Origin: a bacterium
Lineage (GTDB): Bacteria; Armatimonadota; Zipacnadia; Zipacnadales; Zipacnadaceae
Length of the DNA stretch: 64,000 nucleotides
Assembly (NCBI GenBank): GCA_030603495.1
Contig: JAUVXR010000004.1
Coordinates: forward strand, 65,996 to 129,995
Reading direction: 5' to 3'
In this document: positions 77 through 8,010 of the stretch, piece after piece
Position numbering within the stretch: the first letter of the stretch is position 1
Layout of the letters: the number at the start of each line of letters is the position of its first letter
Position numbers and translations under genes: made by a program
Notes under the pieces: generated by a model
The model's database searches: none
What the model was told of the DNA's origin: nothing
The model's input: only the letters and a program-made list of their open reading frames with translations

Positions 77-1312
77 ATGACCAATATGACAACTGAGGGA
101 GCACGCCACGCGGTCGTATATGCCCGCGTCTCCTCGAGACAGCAGGAAGAAGAGGGCTTTTCGATACCGGCCCAGTTGAAGCTGCTCAGGGATTATGCCA
201 GTCAATCAGGGCTGGCAGTAAAGCAGGAGTTCGTGGACGTCGAGACCGCCAAGATGACGGGAAGACCGGGCTTTGCGGAGATGGTAGAGTTCCTGACGGA
301 CCACGCCGACCGCTGCAGGATCATTCTGGTGGAGAAGACCGACCGTCTTTACCGTAACCTCCGTGACTATGTCACGTTGGATGAGCTTGACTTGGAGATC
401 CGCTTCGTCAAGGAGAACTTCGTTCTGTCCGCCGACTCCCGCTCGACGGAAAAGTTCATGCACGGCATCAAGGTCCTGATGGCAAAGAACTATATCGACA
501 ATCTCTCCGAGGAAACGAGCAAGGGCATGCGGGAGAAAGCCGAGCAGGGAACTTGGCCTTCCCGGGCCCCTCTGGGATACCTTAATGTGGATACAAAGGG
601 CAAGCGACACATTGTCCTGGACCCTGAGATCGCGCCGCTGATTTGCCGACTATTCGAGCTGTATGCGACTGGTGACTACTCGTTGCTGGAAGTGACCCGC
701 CAGATCAATGAGGAAGGCCTATGTCATCAGAGAAGCGGGCGTCCAGTTATTAGGAGCGCTATCCATAAGAGCCTTCGCAACCCTATATACTACGGCGACT
801 TCGTTTGGGACGGGAAACACTACTCGGGAACTCACGACCCCATAGTCTCCAAAGAACTGTGGGACAAGGTTCAGCAGGTTCTACACACCAGGGGTAACCG
901 CCGGACTCGACACCAGAAGCACTGGTGGGCTTTCCAGGGGCTTGTGTCGTGTGCGCACTGTGGCTGCGCACTGGTCGCCGAGGAAAAGAAGGGCAAGTAC
1001 GTCTACTATCACTGCACCGGGAATAGGGGGAAGTGTGGTGAACCCTGGGTGCGTGAAGAGGAACTCTCGCGGCAGTTTGGGGAGGTTCTAAGAGACCTAC
1101 ACTTTGAGCCCGAGATACTGGAATGGGTGCGGGATACCCTCCGCGCCAGCCACGCCGACGAAAAGGAATTCCACGACAAGGTGGTTGCTGATCTGCAGAA
1201 GCAATATCAGAAACTACAGGACCGGATTGACGCGATGTACGTTGACAAGCTCGACGGAAGTATCTCGGGTGCCTACTTCGAGGAGAAGAGCGCCGAGTGG
1301 CGTAAAGAATAA
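77..1312 (+). CDS. Large serine recombinase (probably truncated by an in-frame stop)
   Basis: A site-specific DNA integrase/resolvase of the large serine family. Residues about 12-150 form the resolvase catalytic domain, with the nucleophile serine in YARVSSRQQ. Residues about 160-260 are the Recombinase domain (APLGYLNVDTKGK). Residues about 285-330 hold a zinc ribbon (CAHCGCAL, then HCTGNRGKCG). The frame ends at TAA (1310-1312) inside the coiled-coil region, where relatives continue with about 90 more residues. The continuation is present in the same frame just downstream. GAGGTG at 62-67 is a fitting ribosome binding site. The gene points at the 3' end of tRNA-Glu, so it is probably the integrase of an element extending left of the window. 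Whether the shortened protein works is unknown. Confidence 0.85.
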   Translation: MTNMTTEGARHAVVYARVSSRQQEEEGFSIPAQLKLLRDYASQSGLAVKQEFVDVETAKMTGRPGFAEMVEFLTDHADRCRIILVEKTDRLYRNLRDYVTLDELDLEIRFVKENFVLSADSRSTEKFMHGIKVLMAKNYIDNLSEETSKGMREKAEQGTWPSRAPLGYLNVDTKGKRHIVLDPEIAPLICRLFELYATGDYSLLEVTRQINEEGLCHQRSGRPVIRSAIHKSLRNPIYYGDFVWDGKHYSGTHDPIVSKELWDKVQQVLHTRGNRRTRHQKHWWAFQGLVSCAHCGCALVAEEKKGKYVYYHCTGNRGKCGEPWVREEELSRQFGEVLRDLHFEPEILEWVRDTLRASHADEKEFHDKVVADLQKQYQKLQDRIDAMYVDKLDGSISGAYFEEKSAEWRKE

Positions 1313-1597
1313 GCAGACACACGGCGGAAGATCGAACTCCACGAACAGGCGAATCAGAGCTACATCGAAGAGGGCCTTCAACTACTCGAACTGGCCGACA
1401 AGTCCTACGACCTGTACACCGCCCAATGCCCAGAGGAGCAGCGTAGACTGCTTAATTGCGTGGTTTCACATGCTACCTGGGGTAACGGCTCCTTGTCCCC
1501 GGTCTACCGGCCTCCGTTTGACCTTATCGCCCACTCGAACCACGAGTATGCCTGTAACCACAAGGGCTCTGACGATTTTGAAGCCCAAAAAGACATT
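1313..1597 (+). pseudogene. C-terminal remainder of the serine recombinase after the in-frame stop
   Basis: Directly after the TAA at 1310 the same frame stays open and reads ADTRRKIELHEQANQSYIEE, then LLELADKSYDLYTAQ and PEEQRRLLNCVVSHATW. This is the usual C-terminal coiled coil and tail of this recombinase family. One base change (CAA Gln to TAA) explains the break, because relatives commonly have KEQ at this point (family knowledge, not checked). The open frame runs on through the tRNA gene to 1780, but that last part cannot be ancestral protein sequence. It could also be a readthrough product, but no recoding signal was seen. Confidence 0.7.
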
Positions 1598-1640
1598 TGG
1601 TACCCCCACGGGGAGTCGAACCCCGGCTTCCGGACTGAGA
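1598..1640. other. Probable attachment site in the 3' half of tRNA-Glu
   Basis: The recombinase frame abuts the tRNA 3' end, the usual geometry when an element integrates into the 3' end of a tRNA and restores it. The second copy of the core would lie left of position 1, so the direct repeat cannot be seen here. The exact limits are not determined. Confidence 0.35.
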
Positions 1641-1673
1641 ATCCGGCGTCCTTGGCCACTAGACTATGGGGGC
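1598..1673 (-). tRNA. tRNA-Glu (CUC anticodon)
   Basis: The minus strand folds as a full cloverleaf of 76 nt. The acceptor stem is GCCCCCA with UGGGGGU, the D arm is GUCUAGUGGCCAAGGAC, and the anticodon stem CCGGA/UCCGG encloses loop UUCUCAG with anticodon CUC. The T arm is CGGGG-UUCGACU-CCCCG, and the 3' CCA is encoded. The first pair is G-U, which is slightly unusual. A strong promoter lies 15 bp upstream. The recombinase remnant ends right at the tRNA 3' end, which marks this tRNA as an element integration site. Confidence 0.95.
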
Positions 1674-2876: not shown

Positions 2877-4067
2877 CTAAGCTGGCTCGGAGGCGGCCAG
2901 TTGGAGGATACGTACGCCAAGCTGGTCCTCGACTGCCACGATTTCGCCGAAGGCTACTACCTTATCACCCGCTAGGACCTCCACCCTTTCGTCCAGGCTC
3001 TTGTCCAGCACCACCACCGAGCCGACCCGCAATTCGAGCAATTCGGCCAGTGGCACCGCGACCTCGCCCAGCCTGAGCTGGATGTTGACTGGAATCGCGG
3101 ACAGCGACTCTAATCCTGCTCCATCTTCCCCGCAAAGCCGGCTTATCAGCTCCCGCGCAGAACCGTGTGCCTCTAGCTGTTGATCTCGGGTAGTGTCTTC
3201 GCTCATCGGCGTTTCGGTCTCCTTGAAGATTTCTGTCCGGAGCAGGCGTACGCCAAGCTGCCCGCCCCGTGCGCCAGCGCGTCCGGTGGCCACAACGCAG
3301 TCATCCGCCTGTAAGTGGACCACCATCTCCTCGCCGCGGGGCAGGGGGATAACGTCACCTGGTTCCATTGTGGCGACTTCGACCAAGCTCAGTGATACGC
3401 CCGGCAGGATCGCCGCCAGCTTAACCGGTGCCTGCTGCAATTCCCCCAGGCCAAGCGCCGGTTGCCCCGCGTCCCGGTCGCTCGCTACTCGCACCCGCCA
3501 AGCCTCCGTCGGCGCAGTCATCACAACATTACCTTCTGCTGAACCTATCACGAGTCGGAAAAGTAGGGTAAAGCCCTCTCGGCCCTGGCCCAATTTCCCA
3601 GGTGGCAGCGAGGCCAATAGTTGATGTTCGGCCCGCTTGCGGAACAGCATGCGTACCAGGTTGTCGGCCAGCGCTACGAGGTACAGTCGCAGGACGGCGA
3701 GGTCCACCTCAGTTAGGGTCTCGCTCGGTGGGGCCAGCTTAGTCGGATATCCCAACAAAGCCACCACGCAGCGAGCGGCCAGTGGCTGGCCCAGCGTTAT
3801 CACCAACCGACCAGCCTCGCCCAACTCGGTCACGAGCGCCGGCCCGCCGACCAGCGGCAACCCCGCCATATCAGACCGCTGCCACACCAACTCAGGCACA
3901 TCCACGCTAGCGCCAGCGCCCAGGTAACTGCGGCTAATGCGACCCAGTGCCTCAGCTAGCGCCGGCAACTCAGCGTGCAGTGCCTCGCGTTCGGCGCTGC
4001 TCAGTTGCCAGACGGGCGGCCACTGCGTGGCTCGGGATGTGGTCTCAGGTGGTAATAGCATCGTCAC
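2877..4067 (-). CDS. FliM-FliN fusion (C-ring / SctQ-like switch protein)
   Basis: A cytoplasmic ring protein of flagellar or type III secretion systems. Residues about 40-190 match the FliM core (TLTEVDLAVLRLYLVALA, then FTLLFRLVIGSAEGNVVM). Residues about 212-275 form a first SpoA domain. After a polar linker (about 280-310), residues about 320-388 form a second, FliN-like SpoA domain (IPVNIQLRLGEVAVPLAELL). Two SpoA domains in one chain resemble SctQ of injectisomes and fused FliM-FliN. The N-terminal CheY-binding EIDxLL motif of FliM is not seen. The start (GTG 4067, or ATG 4061) overlaps the fliJ-like gene. It is the last gene of the operon. Confidence 0.8.
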   Translation of the reverse strand: MTMLLPPETTSRATQWPPVWQLSSAEREALHAELPALAEALGRISRSYLGAGASVDVPELVWQRSDMAGLPLVGGPALVTELGEAGRLVITLGQPLAARCVVALLGYPTKLAPPSETLTEVDLAVLRLYLVALADNLVRMLFRKRAEHQLLASLPPGKLGQGREGFTLLFRLVIGSAEGNVVMTAPTEAWRVRVASDRDAGQPALGLGELQQAPVKLAAILPGVSLSLVEVATMEPGDVIPLPRGEEMVVHLQADDCVVATGRAGARGGQLGVRLLRTEIFKETETPMSEDTTRDQQLEAHGSARELISRLCGEDGAGLESLSAIPVNIQLRLGEVAVPLAELLELRVGSVVVLDKSLDERVEVLAGDKVVAFGEIVAVEDQLGVRILQLAASEPA

Positions 4068-4506
4068 ACACAGTACGGCTAATCAGTTTTGCGCGTACCA
4101 GCTCGTCAATGTGCTTATCCGCGGCTCGGCGGGTTGCCCGCCGGCTTTCCTCGTCCCGGCGAGCTAAGGCCGTCTCCGTGGCTCGGCGCATCTGCGCTGC
4201 GCCGACTAGTTCTGCCCGCCTGCCGTGCATACGTTCAGCCAGCCCGTGGCGCAGTTGCTCCGTCTTCTCAATATGCCAGCGCAAGGCCTGCGCCGTGCGC
4301 TGCCGGTGCTGGTGCCACTGGATGGTCGCGATCGCGCTGGTGCTCACGCTCTGCCGGAGGACCCGCTCTTGCTGATCCAATGCAGCCAGCCTATTCTCAG
4401 CCGCTGCCATCGCCCGCTGGCATATCGCCACTCGGCGCCCACACAACTGCTCATGCTTGAGCCGGTGAGCAAGCACCCTGCACAACCGGCTGCTGCCGCC
4501 TTCCAT
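4045..4506 (-). CDS. fliJ: FliJ-like coiled-coil export chaperone
   Basis: A 153-residue, highly charged, all-helical protein. It has the size and composition of FliJ, the stalk protein that docks in the FliI ATPase hexamer and links it to the export gate. The C-terminal helix (TALARRDEESRRATRRAADK, then HIDELVRAKL) matches the FliJ pattern of a basic helix ending in an LDE-like motif. A GGAAGGAAGAG box precedes the ATG at 4506. It lies 21 bp after fliI and overlaps the next gene by 23 bp, so the products are probably made together. The identity rests mainly on context and coiled-coil pattern, because FliJ sequences are poorly conserved. Confidence 0.65.
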   Translation of the reverse strand: MEGGSSRLCRVLAHRLKHEQLCGRRVAICQRAMAAAENRLAALDQQERVLRQSVSTSAIATIQWHQHRQRTAQALRWHIEKTEQLRHGLAERMHGRRAELVGAAQMRRATETALARRDEESRRATRRAADKHIDELVRAKLISRTVCDDAITT

Positions 4507-4527
4507 CTCTTCCTTCCTACAAGTGCG

Positions 4528-5865
4528 CTAACTACTCATCAGCTTGCGGAGCCACTCTCTGGTCTGGTCAACGTCGGCCGACTCATTGGGGCCCTGCTGG
4601 AGAAATCGGTTCATCTCAGCCCGCAGCGCCACCGCCCGATCCACCTGCGGGTCACTGCCCCGGCTGTATGCGCCCACGTTTATCAAGTCCCGGGCCTCGT
4701 TGTAGGCGGCCAGCAGCGACTTGAACTCCGCTGCGGCCTGAACGTGGTCACGGCTCGCCACATCGTTCATCAGTCGCGACACCGATCCCGTCACATCAAT
4801 AGCCGGATAGTGGCCGGATTCAGCTAGCTGCCGGGACAGCACAATGCGCCCGTCGAGTATCGCGCTGACAGCGTCAGCCACTGGGTCGTGGAGGTCATCA
4901 CGCTCGACCAGCACAGTATAGAGCGCGGTTATAGTGCCTTCGCCGGTAGCGCCGGCCCGCTCCAATAGGGACGGGAGCATCGTGTACAGCGACGGAGGGT
5001 AGCCTCCCGTGGTCGGCATCTCCCCAGCCGCCAGGCCCACCTCACGCTGGGCCTGGGCCAGCCGGGTCAGGGAATCCATGAGCAACAGGACATTGGCCCC
5101 GCTGTCCCGGAAATACTCGGCGATCGCAGTCGCCGCCATGCCCGTCTGGAGCCGAAGCAAGGGCGGCTGGTCGGAGGTAGTCACTACCACCACGGAGTTG
5201 CTCAGACCCTCGCCGAGGTCCCTCTGGAGGAAGTCGAGCACCTCGCGACCGCGTTCGCCGACCAGGGCGATGACGTTCACATCCGCCGTAGTATGCTGGG
5301 CAATCATCCCCAGCAGCACGCTCTTGCCGACTCCTGCCCCCGAGAAGATGCCCAGGCGCTGTCCTTGGCAGCAGGTCAGCAGACCATCAATGGCCCGCAC
5401 GCCCGTCCACAGTGGCGCGGCGACGCGGCGGCGCTTCAGCGGAAGGGGCGGGGCGGCTTGCACGGGGCGGTAAGTCTGCACGGAGACCGGGCCTTTTTCG
5501 TCCAGGGGACGACCAAAGCAATCTACTACCCGGCCCAGCAGCTGCGGCCCGACGCCGATCTGGAGAGGTTGGCCGGTGGCGAGAACCTGACAGCCGGGCT
5601 CCACGCCCTGGAGCGGACCAAGGGTGAGTAGGACAGTGTGCTTATCGCGGAAGGCGACCACCTGCGCATGGATAGAGCCACTGCTGCCGCTGGGCTGCAG
5701 GATGCATAGCTCCCCGATCTGCGCCGGTGGGCCTTGGGCGACGATGGTTAGGCCGGATACCTCTACCACCCGGCCCATGCGCTGGAAGCGCCCGGCTACC
5801 TTCGTCCGCTCGACGAGGTCGTCCAACTGCCGCACATACTCAGCGATGACGGATTGAGTCGTCAC
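4528..5865 (-). CDS. fliI: Flagellar/type III secretion ATPase FliI
   Basis: The AAA-like export ATPase of the F1-beta family that energises substrate unfolding at the export gate. The 445-residue length is normal. The P-loop FSGAGVGKS lies at about 174-182, Walker B NVLLLMDSLTRLAQAQREV at about 259-277, and the hallmark GYPPSLYTMLPSLLERAG follows. The N-terminal beta barrel and the DDLHDPVADAVSAILDGRI stretch also fit FliI/SctN rather than ATP synthase. The likely start is GTG 5865, behind a GGGGGGCAGAGG box. It sits between the fliH- and fliJ-like genes with gaps of 22 and 21 bp, the classical order. Confidence 0.95.
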   Translation of the reverse strand: MTTQSVIAEYVRQLDDLVERTKVAGRFQRMGRVVEVSGLTIVAQGPPAQIGELCILQPSGSSGSIHAQVVAFRDKHTVLLTLGPLQGVEPGCQVLATGQPLQIGVGPQLLGRVVDCFGRPLDEKGPVSVQTYRPVQAAPPLPLKRRRVAAPLWTGVRAIDGLLTCCQGQRLGIFSGAGVGKSVLLGMIAQHTTADVNVIALVGERGREVLDFLQRDLGEGLSNSVVVVTTSDQPPLLRLQTGMAATAIAEYFRDSGANVLLLMDSLTRLAQAQREVGLAAGEMPTTGGYPPSLYTMLPSLLERAGATGEGTITALYTVLVERDDLHDPVADAVSAILDGRIVLSRQLAESGHYPAIDVTGSVSRLMNDVASRDHVQAAAEFKSLLAAYNEARDLINVGAYSRGSDPQVDRAVALRAEMNRFLQQGPNESADVDQTREWLRKLMSS

Positions 5866-5887
5866 CTCTGCCCCCCTGACAGCGCAG

Positions 5888-6489
5888 CTACTGTTCGATA
5901 GATGTCAGCAGCGTTGTTTGAATGCGGCCGAACTGGGTGGGGATATTAGCGTCAAGGATCCCGTGGTCGCTTTCCACCACACACCCACCCCGCTCCACCC
6001 CCCGGTCGGCTATCACCCGCAGATGGGAAAATCGCCCCAGAACTGTGTCATCGGTCGCCAGAGCTTGTTCTACCAGCGGTCTGTCATCAGGATGAACCCG
6101 CACCTGTAGCTCGCCCTCGCAGGCCACCTCATCCAGAGCAGCCTTGACAGTACGCTCCACGACCCGCCGGTCCTGGCGTATCTCGGCAGCCACAATGCGG
6201 CGGGCAATGCTGATCGCCAGGCGAACGACGTGTGGGCGCAACTCGTCAAGCAGCCGCTCTCTGTCGCGGGCGAGCTGAGTGGTTAAGTCATGCAGCAAGT
6301 GGCGGATACGCGCCATCCGTTGAAGTTCAGTATCCGGCTGATCCGGCCCGCCGGAACTCGGCCTGAGCCCCGCCCCTTCCCGCACCAGTGTGGCCCCCCC
6401 CCCTGCGCAAAGCTGCTTTCCAGCCGTACAGGCCGTACCCACAGTCCGGCGTGGGTAATATCTGTCTTCTTGACCAGGTGGTTCGCCAT
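5888..6489 (-). CDS. fliH: FliH-like ATPase regulator, frame broken at a ten-base G tract
   Basis: FliH/SctL is the peripheral stalk that binds FliI and the C-ring. The C-terminal part is clear: LRPHVVRLAISIARRIVAAE, VRVHPDDRPLVEQA, then RGGCVVESDHGILDANI, the FliH signature. The natural start is ATG 6489, two bases after the stop of the preceding gene. That frame reads MANHLVKKTDITHAGLWV and RPVRLESSFAQGGG and then meets a run of ten G (6394-6403). Downstream of the run the FliH frame is shifted by one. As it stands, the product from 6489 would terminate at 6283. The rest could start only at ATG 6442 or 6313. The gene is therefore phase-variable, decayed or mis-sequenced. Confidence 0.75.
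6394..6403. repeat. Homopolymer tract of ten C (ten G in the coding strand)
   Basis: Ten consecutive C on the plus strand lie exactly where the fliH-like reading frame changes. It is the longest G/C homopolymer noticed in the window. Such tracts slip during replication and also cause sequencing or assembly errors. Confidence 0.9.
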
Positions 6490-6490
6490 A

Positions 6491-7525
6491 TTAATCACCA
6501 TCCGAGCCAGTATTGAATACGGCTGCGGTCGGTTCAGGGCACGGGTTGTTTTCGCTCGCCGTGCGCTTCAGCTGCAAGGCATCTGCTAATGAGCGCAACG
6601 TCTCATCACGAGCTGGGTGGGTCGCTGTCGGCAGTGAGCTCGCGTCGATATCTAGCACGCTGCGGCCCTGTCGTGTGATCTCTTCGTCCGGCATGTTTTG
6701 CAGGGCCACTGCCACCACTTCGGGGCGTTCTCCGCCCACCAACGCTGTAACCTCGTCCGGCGACAGCTCTGCCAGGAAATGAAGCGGATTTGGCCGCTCG
6801 ACCGAAGCCGAGCTTATCTCAGTTGGAGGCGCTTCGACTTGGCGCTCGTACTGCGTTCGCCACCGCAGCACTAGGTATGCCGCCATGGCCAGCACAACAC
6901 AGACGGCGGTCAGTCCCAGCGCGGCTTTCCACGGATCAGATAATATTGCGGCGGTCGGGGCCGCACCCGCGGAGACGAGGGCAGGCTCCAATAGTCTTGC
7001 TGCCGCCGGGGTCGGCTGACCTTGAGAAAACAGCAGGGCGCCACTGCTGTCAGTGATGAGCAGGTCCGTCCGCTGCAGCCCCTGGACAGTGTGGAGCACC
7101 AAGGCAGTCAGACTGTCGAGCCAGCTGTCAGGGCGTGGGCTGGTGGCCTCAAGATGCAAGGAGAGCGCCAGGCGAGGCGAATCAGCAGACTTAGCTTCCA
7201 GCAAAGGGGTTGCAAAGATGGCGTCGGCGGAAGCAACGTAGTCATAGCCGGCCAGCATACTTTCCAGACGCTGGGCAATTTCGGCCTGCTCGCGCCGTCG
7301 GGTGCCCGGTAGAGGCAGAGAGAGGATGCTCGTGGCAGAAGCACGCGCAGCAGGTAGATCACTGCCGTCCGGGACGGCAGACCACTGCGCAGCGGGCACA
7401 GAATATGCCTGATAGGTCGCCGCACCCAGTGCGGCGACTACCGCTGCCAGCACGGTAAGAGATAGAACTCTGGCCGCCGCTCTAAGCGACTGCCACCACT
7501 GAAGAATCTCGCGAAGCGCCTCCAT
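6491..7525 (-). CDS. Reduced FliF MS-ring protein fused to a FliG-like middle domain
   Basis: A 344-residue inner-membrane protein. TM1 spans about 19-40. Residues about 88-168 match the FliF/SctJ ring-building motif 3 region (LHTVQGLQRTDLLITDSSG). TM2 lies at about 201-221. The cytoplasmic tail then contains NPLHFLAELSPDEV and RPEVVAVALQNMPDEE at about 246-282. These resemble the FliG middle-domain pattern NPFSFLRDVDPQQL and HPQTIALILAYLDPEQA. FliF is normally over 500 residues, so the RBM1/2 domains appear to be missing. It is the first gene of the operon and carries a promoter and palindrome upstream. The FliF part is well supported. The FliG part is a short match and should be tested by profile search. 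Confidence 0.75.
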   Translation of the reverse strand: MEALREILQWWQSLRAAARVLSLTVLAAVVAALGAATYQAYSVPAAQWSAVPDGSDLPAARASATSILSLPLPGTRRREQAEIAQRLESMLAGYDYVASADAIFATPLLEAKSADSPRLALSLHLEATSPRPDSWLDSLTALVLHTVQGLQRTDLLITDSSGALLFSQGQPTPAAARLLEPALVSAGAAPTAAILSDPWKAALGLTAVCVVLAMAAYLVLRWRTQYERQVEAPPTEISSASVERPNPLHFLAELSPDEVTALVGGERPEVVAVALQNMPDEEITRQGRSVLDIDASSLPTATHPARDETLRSLADALQLKRTASENNPCPEPTAAVFNTGSDGD

Positions 7526-7552: not shown

Positions 7553-7675
7553 CGCGAATCTTCAGGGCGCGGGGATGGGCGTTCAGTGACTATTGCCCTT
7601 GAATTGCTATTGAGGTGGTCTGCGAACTCGCTGCGAGTATTAGGCTAGTGATCCTTCTCCCATCCCTCGGCCGTC

Positions 7676-7704
7676 TTTATACCATATGTTCCACAAATTG
7701 TCAA
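7676..7704 (-). promoter_or_regulatory. Sigma-70 promoter of the flagellar-like operon
   Basis: On the minus strand TTGACA (7704-7699) and TATAAA (7681-7676) are 17 bp apart. Transcription would start near 7669 and leave a leader of about 143 nt before the FliF-like start. A housekeeping promoter, rather than a sigma-28 or sigma-54 site, suggests constitutive expression. Confidence 0.7.
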
Positions 7705-7836
7705 TACCTTTTCCAGCGGTTATCAACAATGTCTTCCACATTTGCATCAGGCAGCACTCCGCTGCAACAAGGAGATCCCAGCATTGATGTCGAAAATAAG
7801 ACCACAGCCGAGCAAGAAAAGGAGGCCAACAAGCTG

Positions 7837-8010
7837 GGTGTACGTGCTCCGCTTATCAAAGCCGGCCTTACTAAGGTTCAGGTGTGCGAGCAAGTCATTG
7901 CCGCACTGCGCGGGGCCGGATTCACTTATGTCACCGTTGACCTGGGCGCCTATCGCTCTGGGAGTATGGACGAGACGCTGGATAGCCCTGAGGGACCGAA
8001 CATATCTTGA
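7837..8010 (+). pseudogene. Possible remnant of a LarE-type sulfur transferase C terminus
   Basis: The open frame ending at 8010 reads VIAALRGAGFTYVTVDLGAY and then RSGSMDETL. This resembles the end of LarE/TIGR00268 ATP-pyrophosphatase-like proteins (GFxYVTLDLxGYRSGSMNE). The rest of that roughly 270-residue family is absent. The upstream half of the frame overlaps the minus-strand promoter and leader and looks non-coding, and no convincing start codon was found. I read it as a leftover C-terminal fragment. The family match is from memory and needs a search. Confidence 0.35.

What the first reader, a model, noticed from the sequence alone, without database searches (positions are those of the whole stretch)
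2877..7525. Minimal flagellar/type III-like operon with two fused ring proteins and no export gate
Five genes in tight order encode a FliF-like ring fused to a FliG-like domain, FliH, FliI, FliJ and a FliM-FliN fusion. The proteins for ring, switch and ATPase are all here. FlhA, FlhB, FliPQR, rod, hook, filament, needle and translocator genes are not. The housekeeping promoter and compact fusions suggest either a streamlined apparatus whose gate genes lie elsewhere or a repurposed ATPase-ring machine. Fusion of neighbouring parts on this scale in one small operon is not something I have seen described.
Basis: partly seen in the sequence, partly recalled or inferred. Interest (0 to 1): 0.85.

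Follow-up and report, generated by a model that had tools for sequence, protein, structure and literature searches.

The report
Flagellum-derived export machine without a flagellum
This little-studied bacterium has no flagellum, yet it and its relatives keep a stripped, heavily fused version of the machine that exports flagellum parts, together with the genes of its classic on/off gene switch, which suggests that evolution turned the flagellar exporter into a different device a second time, apart from the well-known injectisomes.

Summary
The five genes are real: a FliF ring domain fused to the middle domain of FliG, then FliH, FliI, FliJ and a FliM-FliN fusion. But the export gate is not missing. 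FliO, FliP, FliQ, FliR and a short FlhB lie on another contig, and FlhA with a sigma-28 gene on a third. About 26 genomes of one Armatimonadota class carry this system, several as one uninterrupted operon in flagellar gene order. It is distinct from the true flagellum that some of the same genomes also have. Eleven genomes have only this system; none has a rod, hook or flagellin gene. Every FlhB lacks the self-cleaving domain. The ring protein keeps the part of FliG that holds FliM and lacks the part that makes torque. The genes are under purifying selection. The anti-sigma factor FlgM, normally exported by this kind of machine, accompanies the system in every genome checked, often behind a sigma-28-type promoter. 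Best reading: a de-motorised flagellar exporter that arose inside Armatimonadota and probably switches genes by exporting FlgM. Other cargo and the route across the outer membrane are unknown. No earlier description was found in the paper library.

The parts
6491..7525 (-). fliF*: ring protein; TM helix, one ring-building motif (RBM2), TM helix, FliG middle domain fused at the C-terminus. No RBM1, RBM3, FliG N-terminal or FliG torque domain recognised.
   Evidence: AlphaFold model, Foldseek/VIA matches, family profile hits FliG at about 1e-15, alignment A1 across 14 genomes
5888..6442 (-). fliH: ATPase stator; main frame
   Evidence: PF02108 E 4.7e-24; conserved next to fliF* and fliI in relatives
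6394..6501 (-). N-terminal stretch of fliH in another frame, joined to the main frame at a run of ten G (6394-6403); assembly error or slippage
   Evidence: comparison with FliH of G001 and G006
4528..5865 (-). fliI: export ATPase
   Evidence: TIGR01026 E 7e-169; tree
4045..4506 (-). fliJ: ATPase stalk
   Evidence: TIGR02473 E 1.4e-9; conserved in family f1
2877..4061 (-). fliM-fliN fusion: FliM middle domain + FliM SpoA + FliN SpoA; no recognisable CheY-binding N-terminal motif
   Evidence: PF01052 x2, model and fold matches, alignments A5/A6
2877..3206 (-). FliN-like part with a conserved internal ATG at the fusion joint; in family relatives this is a separate gene
   Evidence: internal Met conserved in all five fused genes; G011 and G013 have two genes split at this point

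Best explanation
The operon is the ring-and-ATPase third of a complete but de-motorised flagellar-type export machine. The other two thirds lie elsewhere in the genome: FliO-FliP-FliQ-FliR-FlhB(short) on contig C21, and FlhA plus a FliA/WhiG-type sigma factor on C56. Shown by sequence: the parts, their conservation as a system across one Armatimonadota class, the absence of axial genes, and the loss of FlhB's cleavage domain. Inferred: (1) an RBM2 ring surrounds the FliPQR-FlhB gate; (2) the covalently attached FliG middle domain holds FliM-FliN pods, which dock FliH-FliI-FliJ and load cargo onto FlhA; with no FliG torque domain and no CheY motif the ring is a loading platform, not a rotor; (3) with no FlhB cleavage domain and no hook or needle there is no early/late substrate switch, so the gate serves one fixed cargo class; (4) FlgM is one cargo, and its export frees the sigma-28 encoded beside FlhA, so export activity sets the output of a sigma-28 regulon; (5) the system arose by duplication and deletion of an Armatimonadota flagellar operon. 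The overall confidence refers to a working non-flagellar export apparatus derived from the flagellum. FlgM export alone I put at about 0.45.
For: Complete gate in the same genome. One contiguous operon FliF*-H-I-[J]-M-N-O-P-Q-R-FlhB*-FlhA-sigma in several order/class relatives. Strong FliF* matches in 26 genomes, all of one class; hits elsewhere in the phylum look like ordinary FliF or FliG. No PF00460 rod/hook match in any of 11 system-II-only genomes, present in flagellated relatives; the same for flagellin. All 13 FlhB* lack NPTH, which flagellar FlhB of relatives has. FliG_M and FliM_M both retained. The acidic residue corresponding to FlhA Asp208, essential in Salmonella and replaceable there by Glu (PMC3139655), is Glu in 14 and Asp in 2 of 16. 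dN/dS 0.08-0.38. FlgM in 19 of 19 genomes with either system and 0 of 7 with neither; sigma-28-like sites in 13 of 30 flgM loci; in G042 flgM lies about 2 kb upstream of fliF*. FlhA-II is one clade and FliI-II is one clade within the Armatimonadota flagellar group.
Against: No export was measured and no substrate is shown. Trees place the system nearest Armatimonadota flagella, but AU tests do not reject a grouping with injectisomes (FliI p 0.36); the FlhA branch is long. Genomes are drafts (own genome 93.5% complete), so absences rest on agreement among 11 genomes. The fliH gene has a frame change at a G run in this assembly. Exact sigma-28 sites exceed the reversed control in G000 (7 against 0), G001 and G005, but not in G006 or G011. 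An outer-membrane path was not found: secretins are abundant, but none lies at these loci.
Confidence: 0.72

Rival explanations
1. It is a decaying remnant of a flagellum that this genome lost.
For: The genome has no flagellum, fliH has a frame change in this assembly, and a FlgM2 plus FlgN-position gene pair looks like a relic of the flagellar flgM-flgN-flgK operon.
Against: G001, G018, G021, G030, G041 and G042 have both this system and a flagellum, with separate FlhA and FliI clades. Purifying selection on every gene tested. 26 genomes keep it.
Confidence: 0.04
2. It is a lineage of ordinary injectisome-type NF-T3SS (Sct family), with secretin and needle genes elsewhere.
For: No motility genes; the SpoA-SpoA fusion with an internal start resembles SctQ; many secretins in the genome; AU tests do not exclude a common branch with SctN/SctV.
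Against: All gate parts score higher with flagellar than with Sct models. FliG_M and FliM_M are retained. SctN and SctV each form a separate clade. Holding system-II FlhA with Armatimonadota flagella raises the likelihood by about 24 units.
Confidence: 0.1
3. The machine is an accessory to type IV or Tad pili or another envelope structure, as the needleless T3SS* of Myxococcus works with the Kil pilus, and not mainly a FlgM-based gene switch.
For: Myxococcus T3SS* lacks secretin, needle and translocon and works with a Tad pilus (PMC12075869). Export genes of non-flagellated Lysobacter affect twitching (PMC7277350). Many secretins occur in these genomes.
Against: No pilus gene was recognised at the loci examined. 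The constant companions found here are sigma-28 and FlgM.
Confidence: 0.2
4. Sigma-28 and FlgM are retained for a separate regulatory use, and the exporter's cargo is unrelated to FlgM.
For: FlgM export is inferred from the flagellar precedent, not shown. Two or three FlgM paralogues occur in several genomes.
Against: The sigma gene is last in the export operon. FlgM number tracks the number of export systems (one in G007 and G010, two in genomes with both). flgM is linked to the operon in G042.
Confidence: 0.25

Closest known systems
Myxococcus needleless T3SS* (Myxo group of Abby and Rocha 2012; PMC3459982, PMC12075869)
   Same: Sorting platform, ATPase and export gate without secretin, needle, translocon, rod or hook; FliO present (PMC12403147); reported to lack FliE, FliG and MotAB.
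   Different: Myxo is grouped with NF-T3SS by its authors. Here the ring is FliF RBM2 fused to FliG_M, the pod is FliM_M-FliN, sigma-28/FlgM accompany it, and FlhB lacks its whole cleavage domain. The Myxo sequences themselves could not be compared here.
Bacterial flagellar type III export apparatus (fla/che-type operon)
   Same: Same components and the same gene order F-(G)-H-I-J-M-N-O-P-Q-R-B-A-sigma (order in Bacillus from own knowledge); FlgM and sigma-28.
   Different: No axial proteins found, no FliG torque domain in the fused ring protein; single-RBM FliF; truncated FlhB; clade separate from the flagellar genes of the same genomes.
SctQ-type sorting platform proteins (for example SpaO with its short form; PMC13059759)
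   Same: Two SpoA domains in one chain with a conserved internal start codon.
   Different: The N-terminal half folds as a FliM middle domain, and relatives have two separate genes.
Flagellar export genes in non-flagellated Lysobacter enzymogenes (PMC7277350)
   Same: Export apparatus retained and functional without a flagellum.
   Different: There the flagellum's own export genes are left after its loss; here a class-wide, separate paralogous system with fusions.

Membership tests
Bacterial flagellum | rod, hook and hook-associated proteins (PF00460) | tested here: not met
   no match in 11 system-II-only genomes; matches in 10 flagellated relatives
Bacterial flagellum | flagellin / FlgL (PF00669) | tested here: not met
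   no match in the same 11 genomes; present in 7 flagellated ones
Bacterial flagellum | FlhB with self-cleaving NPTH domain | tested here: not met
   all 13 end at or after the linker with no NPTH; flagellar FlhB of relatives has it
Bacterial flagellum | complete export gate FlhA, FlhB core, FliP, FliQ, FliR | tested here: met
Bacterial flagellum | FliG torque domain and MotA/B stators | not tested
   torque domain not seen in FliF*, but PF01706 and MotA were not searched genome-wide
Non-flagellar T3SS (injectisome) | components pass the Sct equivalog models | tested here: not met
   FlhA 279 bits against cut-off 692, FliP 154 against 209, FliI 554 against 605; flagellar models score higher
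Non-flagellar T3SS (injectisome) | dedicated secretin | tested here: inconclusive
   nine secretin matches in the genome, none on the contigs of the loci
Non-flagellar T3SS (injectisome) | ATPase and SctV inside the NF-T3SS clade | tested here: inconclusive
   separate clades in both trees, but AU tests do not reject a joint branch
Non-flagellar T3SS (injectisome) | needle, tip, translocon, SctD | not tested
   no such model was run genome-wide; none recognised at the loci read
Myxo needleless T3SS* | shared ancestry with the Myxo group | not testable with these tools
   no Myxococcus sequences were at hand; only literature compared

The most novel reading that the evidence does not exclude
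A type III machine that arose a second time from a flagellum, independently of injectisomes, has lost its motor, its conduit and its substrate switch, and works chiefly as a signalling device: it exports the anti-sigma factor FlgM so that export activity across the inner membrane is read out as gene expression.
Probability: 0.3. Interest if true: 0.9.

Novelty: new variant of a known kind. Interest (0 to 1): 0.75.

Why it matters
Injectisomes (NF-T3SS) are held to have evolved from the flagellum, with only Myxococcales keeping an intermediate without secretin or needle. This class-wide system looks like a second, independent conversion, caught in genomes that still carry the flagellum it came from. 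It shows which flagellar domains can be discarded (FliF RBM1 and RBM3, FliG N and C domains, FlhB cleavage domain, all axial proteins) and which are kept (RBM2, FliG_M, FliM_M, SpoA, the gate, the acidic FlhA residue, FlgM). That makes the minimal working export machine, and whether FlhB cleavage is needed for export as such, testable.

Tried and rejected
Decay of a lost flagellum: rejected by separate clades, wide conservation and dN/dS. Missing gate: rejected. A separate FlhB cleavage-domain gene: no second PF01312 match in G000. Naming the organism: the genome-contig scan with FlhA-II filled up with ordinary flagellar FlhA and held no recognisable relative of the system; the phylum was instead inferred from flagellar FlhA trees in which Fimbriimonadales sit among the phylum's members. 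Secretin search: many hits, none linked. The hat-like fT3SS-related structure (PMC9380563): no gene content to compare in the part read. PADLOC: no hits. Inverted repeats upstream of fliF: none. Other genes behind sigma-28-type sites (hybrid histidine kinase, lipoprotein) give no clear function. Literature searches for Armatimonadota with type III or flagellar genes gave no description.
Full report
What was checked. The window holds five minus-strand genes between 2877 and 7525. Pfam and NCBIfam name four of them plainly: FliH, FliI, FliJ and a protein with two FliMN_C (SpoA) domains. The ring protein is recognised only weakly. Gaps between the genes are 48, 22, 21 and -17 bases. The window is contig C24:65996-129995 of a 2.67-Mb draft genome, 93.5% complete.

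The gate is present elsewhere. FlhA lies at C56:6857-8752, next to a FliA/WhiG-type sigma factor. FliP lies at C21:23317-23892 and a short FlhB at C21:25078-25779, with FliO, FliQ and FliR in the same row.

Two systems in one class. Searches of relatives with the FliM-FliN protein and with FliP, FlhB and FlhA profiles showed two sets of genes. One is an ordinary flagellum (FliP E about 1e-80, full-length FlhB). The other, here called system II, has a more distant FliP (about 1e-57 to 1e-74) and an FlhB that matches only about the first 240 of 335 profile positions. G001, G018, G021, G030, G041 and G042 have both; G000 and ten others have only system II. In several order- and class-level relatives system II is one uninterrupted operon: FliF*, FliH, FliI, a FliJ-sized gap, SpoA1, SpoA2, FliO, FliP, FliQ, FliR, FlhB*, FlhA, sigma. 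That is the order of a fla/che-type flagellar operon (own knowledge of Bacillus) with axial, motor and chemotaxis genes removed. In the window's genus it is split into three loci. Of 291 phylum genomes searched with the FliF* alignment, 26 gave strong matches, all in this class. The phylum is Armatimonadota by inference: Fimbriimonadales FlhA sequences sit among the phylum's members.

The ring protein. The AlphaFold model (mean pLDDT 72) has a TM helix, one RBM2 domain, a second TM helix and a helical C-terminal domain. RBM2 matches FliF RBM2 at Z about 11 with 19-24% identity; the C-terminal domain matches the FliG middle domain at Z about 10, for example 4fq0_C with rmsd 2.0 over 76 residues. 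Independently of the model, the family profile finds true FliG proteins at E 1e-13 to 1e-16, aligned at their middle domain and sharing an ERPxVxA-like motif.

The FliM-FliN protein. The model (pLDDT 75) has a FliM middle domain (Z about 18), a FliM SpoA and a FliN SpoA; the best match to the two SpoA domains is the solved FliM(SpoA)-FliN fusion. The PDB profile search agrees. G011 and G013 have two separate genes; the five fused genes of the window's genus keep a Met codon at the joint. This resembles the internal start of SctQ/SpaO, but expression of a short form here is inference.

What is missing. No PF00460 rod/hook protein occurs in any of the 11 system-II-only genomes, while 10 flagellated relatives have 4-6 matches each. 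No flagellin or FlgL was found there either. All 13 FlhB* proteins lack NPTH; 12 stop right after the linker and one runs to the end of its contig. No FlhB cleavage domain was found elsewhere in G000. FliG torque domain, stators, SctD and needle were not searched genome-wide.

Signs of function. dN/dS is 0.08-0.38 for nine system II genes in two genome pairs; gate and ATPase values are near those of neighbouring housekeeping genes. The FlhA residue corresponding to Salmonella Asp208 (in the motif KFVRGD; correspondence inferred from the motif) is essential there, and Glu is tolerated (PMC3139655); here it is Glu in 14 and Asp in 2 of 16. These favour an active exporter.

The sigma-28 and FlgM link. 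The FliA/WhiG consensus TAAA-N14..16-GCCGATA occurs 7 times in G000 against 0 in the reversed control; G001 and G005 also show an excess, G006 and G011 do not. Two of the G000 sites precede two FlgM genes. FlgM (PF04316) occurs in every one of 19 genomes with a flagellum or system II, and in none of 7 where the SpoA search had found nothing. Copy number follows: one in flagellum-only genomes, two in genomes with both systems. Thirteen of 30 flgM loci carry a sigma-28-like site. In G042 flgM lies about 2 kb upstream of fliF* on the same strand, with a GAF-HD gene between. Several non-flagellated genus members also keep a second FlgM and a small gene in the FlgN position, likely left from the flagellar flgM-flgN-flgK operon seen in G001. 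FlgM is the textbook substrate whose export frees sigma-28 (own knowledge), hence the proposed switch. Export of FlgM here is not shown.

Origin. System II FlhA and FliI are each monophyletic. In the FliI tree rooted on F1 ATPase they fall with Armatimonadota flagellar FliI (83/87) and apart from SctN (100/99). Holding FlhA-II with the class's flagella improves the likelihood by about 24 over the free quick tree. AU tests reject neither this nor a joint branch with injectisomes, so independent origin is favoured and not proven. Better scores with flagellar than with Sct models and the retained FliG_M and FliM_M point the same way.

Comparison with what is known. The nearest known kind is the needleless T3SS* of Myxococcus (PMC3459982, PMC12075869, PMC12403147), which also lacks secretin, needle and axial parts and works with a Tad-like pilus. 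The FliF-FliG_M fusion, the FlhB truncation and the FlgM circuit set the present system apart. I found no earlier description in the paper library; subscription journals and preprints are mostly not held, so this is not proof of novelty.

Limits. The genomes are drafts without names; absences rest on agreement between genomes. The fliH frame change at a run of ten G in this assembly may be an error. The outer-membrane route and the other cargo are unknown.

Noticed in passing
window 6394-6403: Run of ten G inside fliH at which the reading frame changes; either an assembly error or a slippage/phase-variable tract. FliH is intact in G001 and G006.
   Followed up: partly
window 77-1673 and G000:C24:56000-66000 (L003): Large serine recombinase next to a tRNA gene (1601-1673, -), preceded on the contig by a phage-type integrase, a DUF5131 gene and a GMT-wHTH protein: probably the end of an integrated mobile element just left of the operon.
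   Followed up: partly
L329:2477-2875 and 3048-3383 (G000:C10): 132-aa helical protein behind a sigma-28 site and a conserved ~111-117-aa protein in the FlgN position (61-68% identical among genus members); possible cargo and chaperone of the export system.
   Followed up: partly
L330:2038-3540 (G000:C18), L335, L336: PAS hybrid histidine kinase with a conserved upstream sigma-28-type site in G000, G004 and G006.
   Followed up: partly
L097:9994-10773 and equivalents in G005, G006, G011: Amidohydrolase gene inserted between fliO and fliP of the gate locus in some relatives.
   Followed up: no
L094:8878-9240, L095:13056-13415, L096, L097: A third SpoA (FliN-like) gene at the head of the gate locus in G001, G004, G005 and G006, not found in G000.
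   Followed up: no
L094:7863-8663, L093:8521-9576: A HisKA-type kinase gene regularly precedes the gate locus in the window's genus.
   Followed up: no
window 7615-8010: Short ORF beside fliF related to a PP-loop (LarE-like) protein that is full length in G001 (L109:5118-5996); a nickel-insertion (LarC-type) gene lies near the gate locus.
   Followed up: no
L294:7389-8168 (Mesorhizobium huakuii plasmid): Annotated SctU of only about 260 codons, short against about 340-360 elsewhere; possible truncation of an injectisome SctU, not examined.
   Followed up: no
G000: Nine secretin matches in a 2.7-Mb genome, which looks like many; types not assigned.
   Followed up: no
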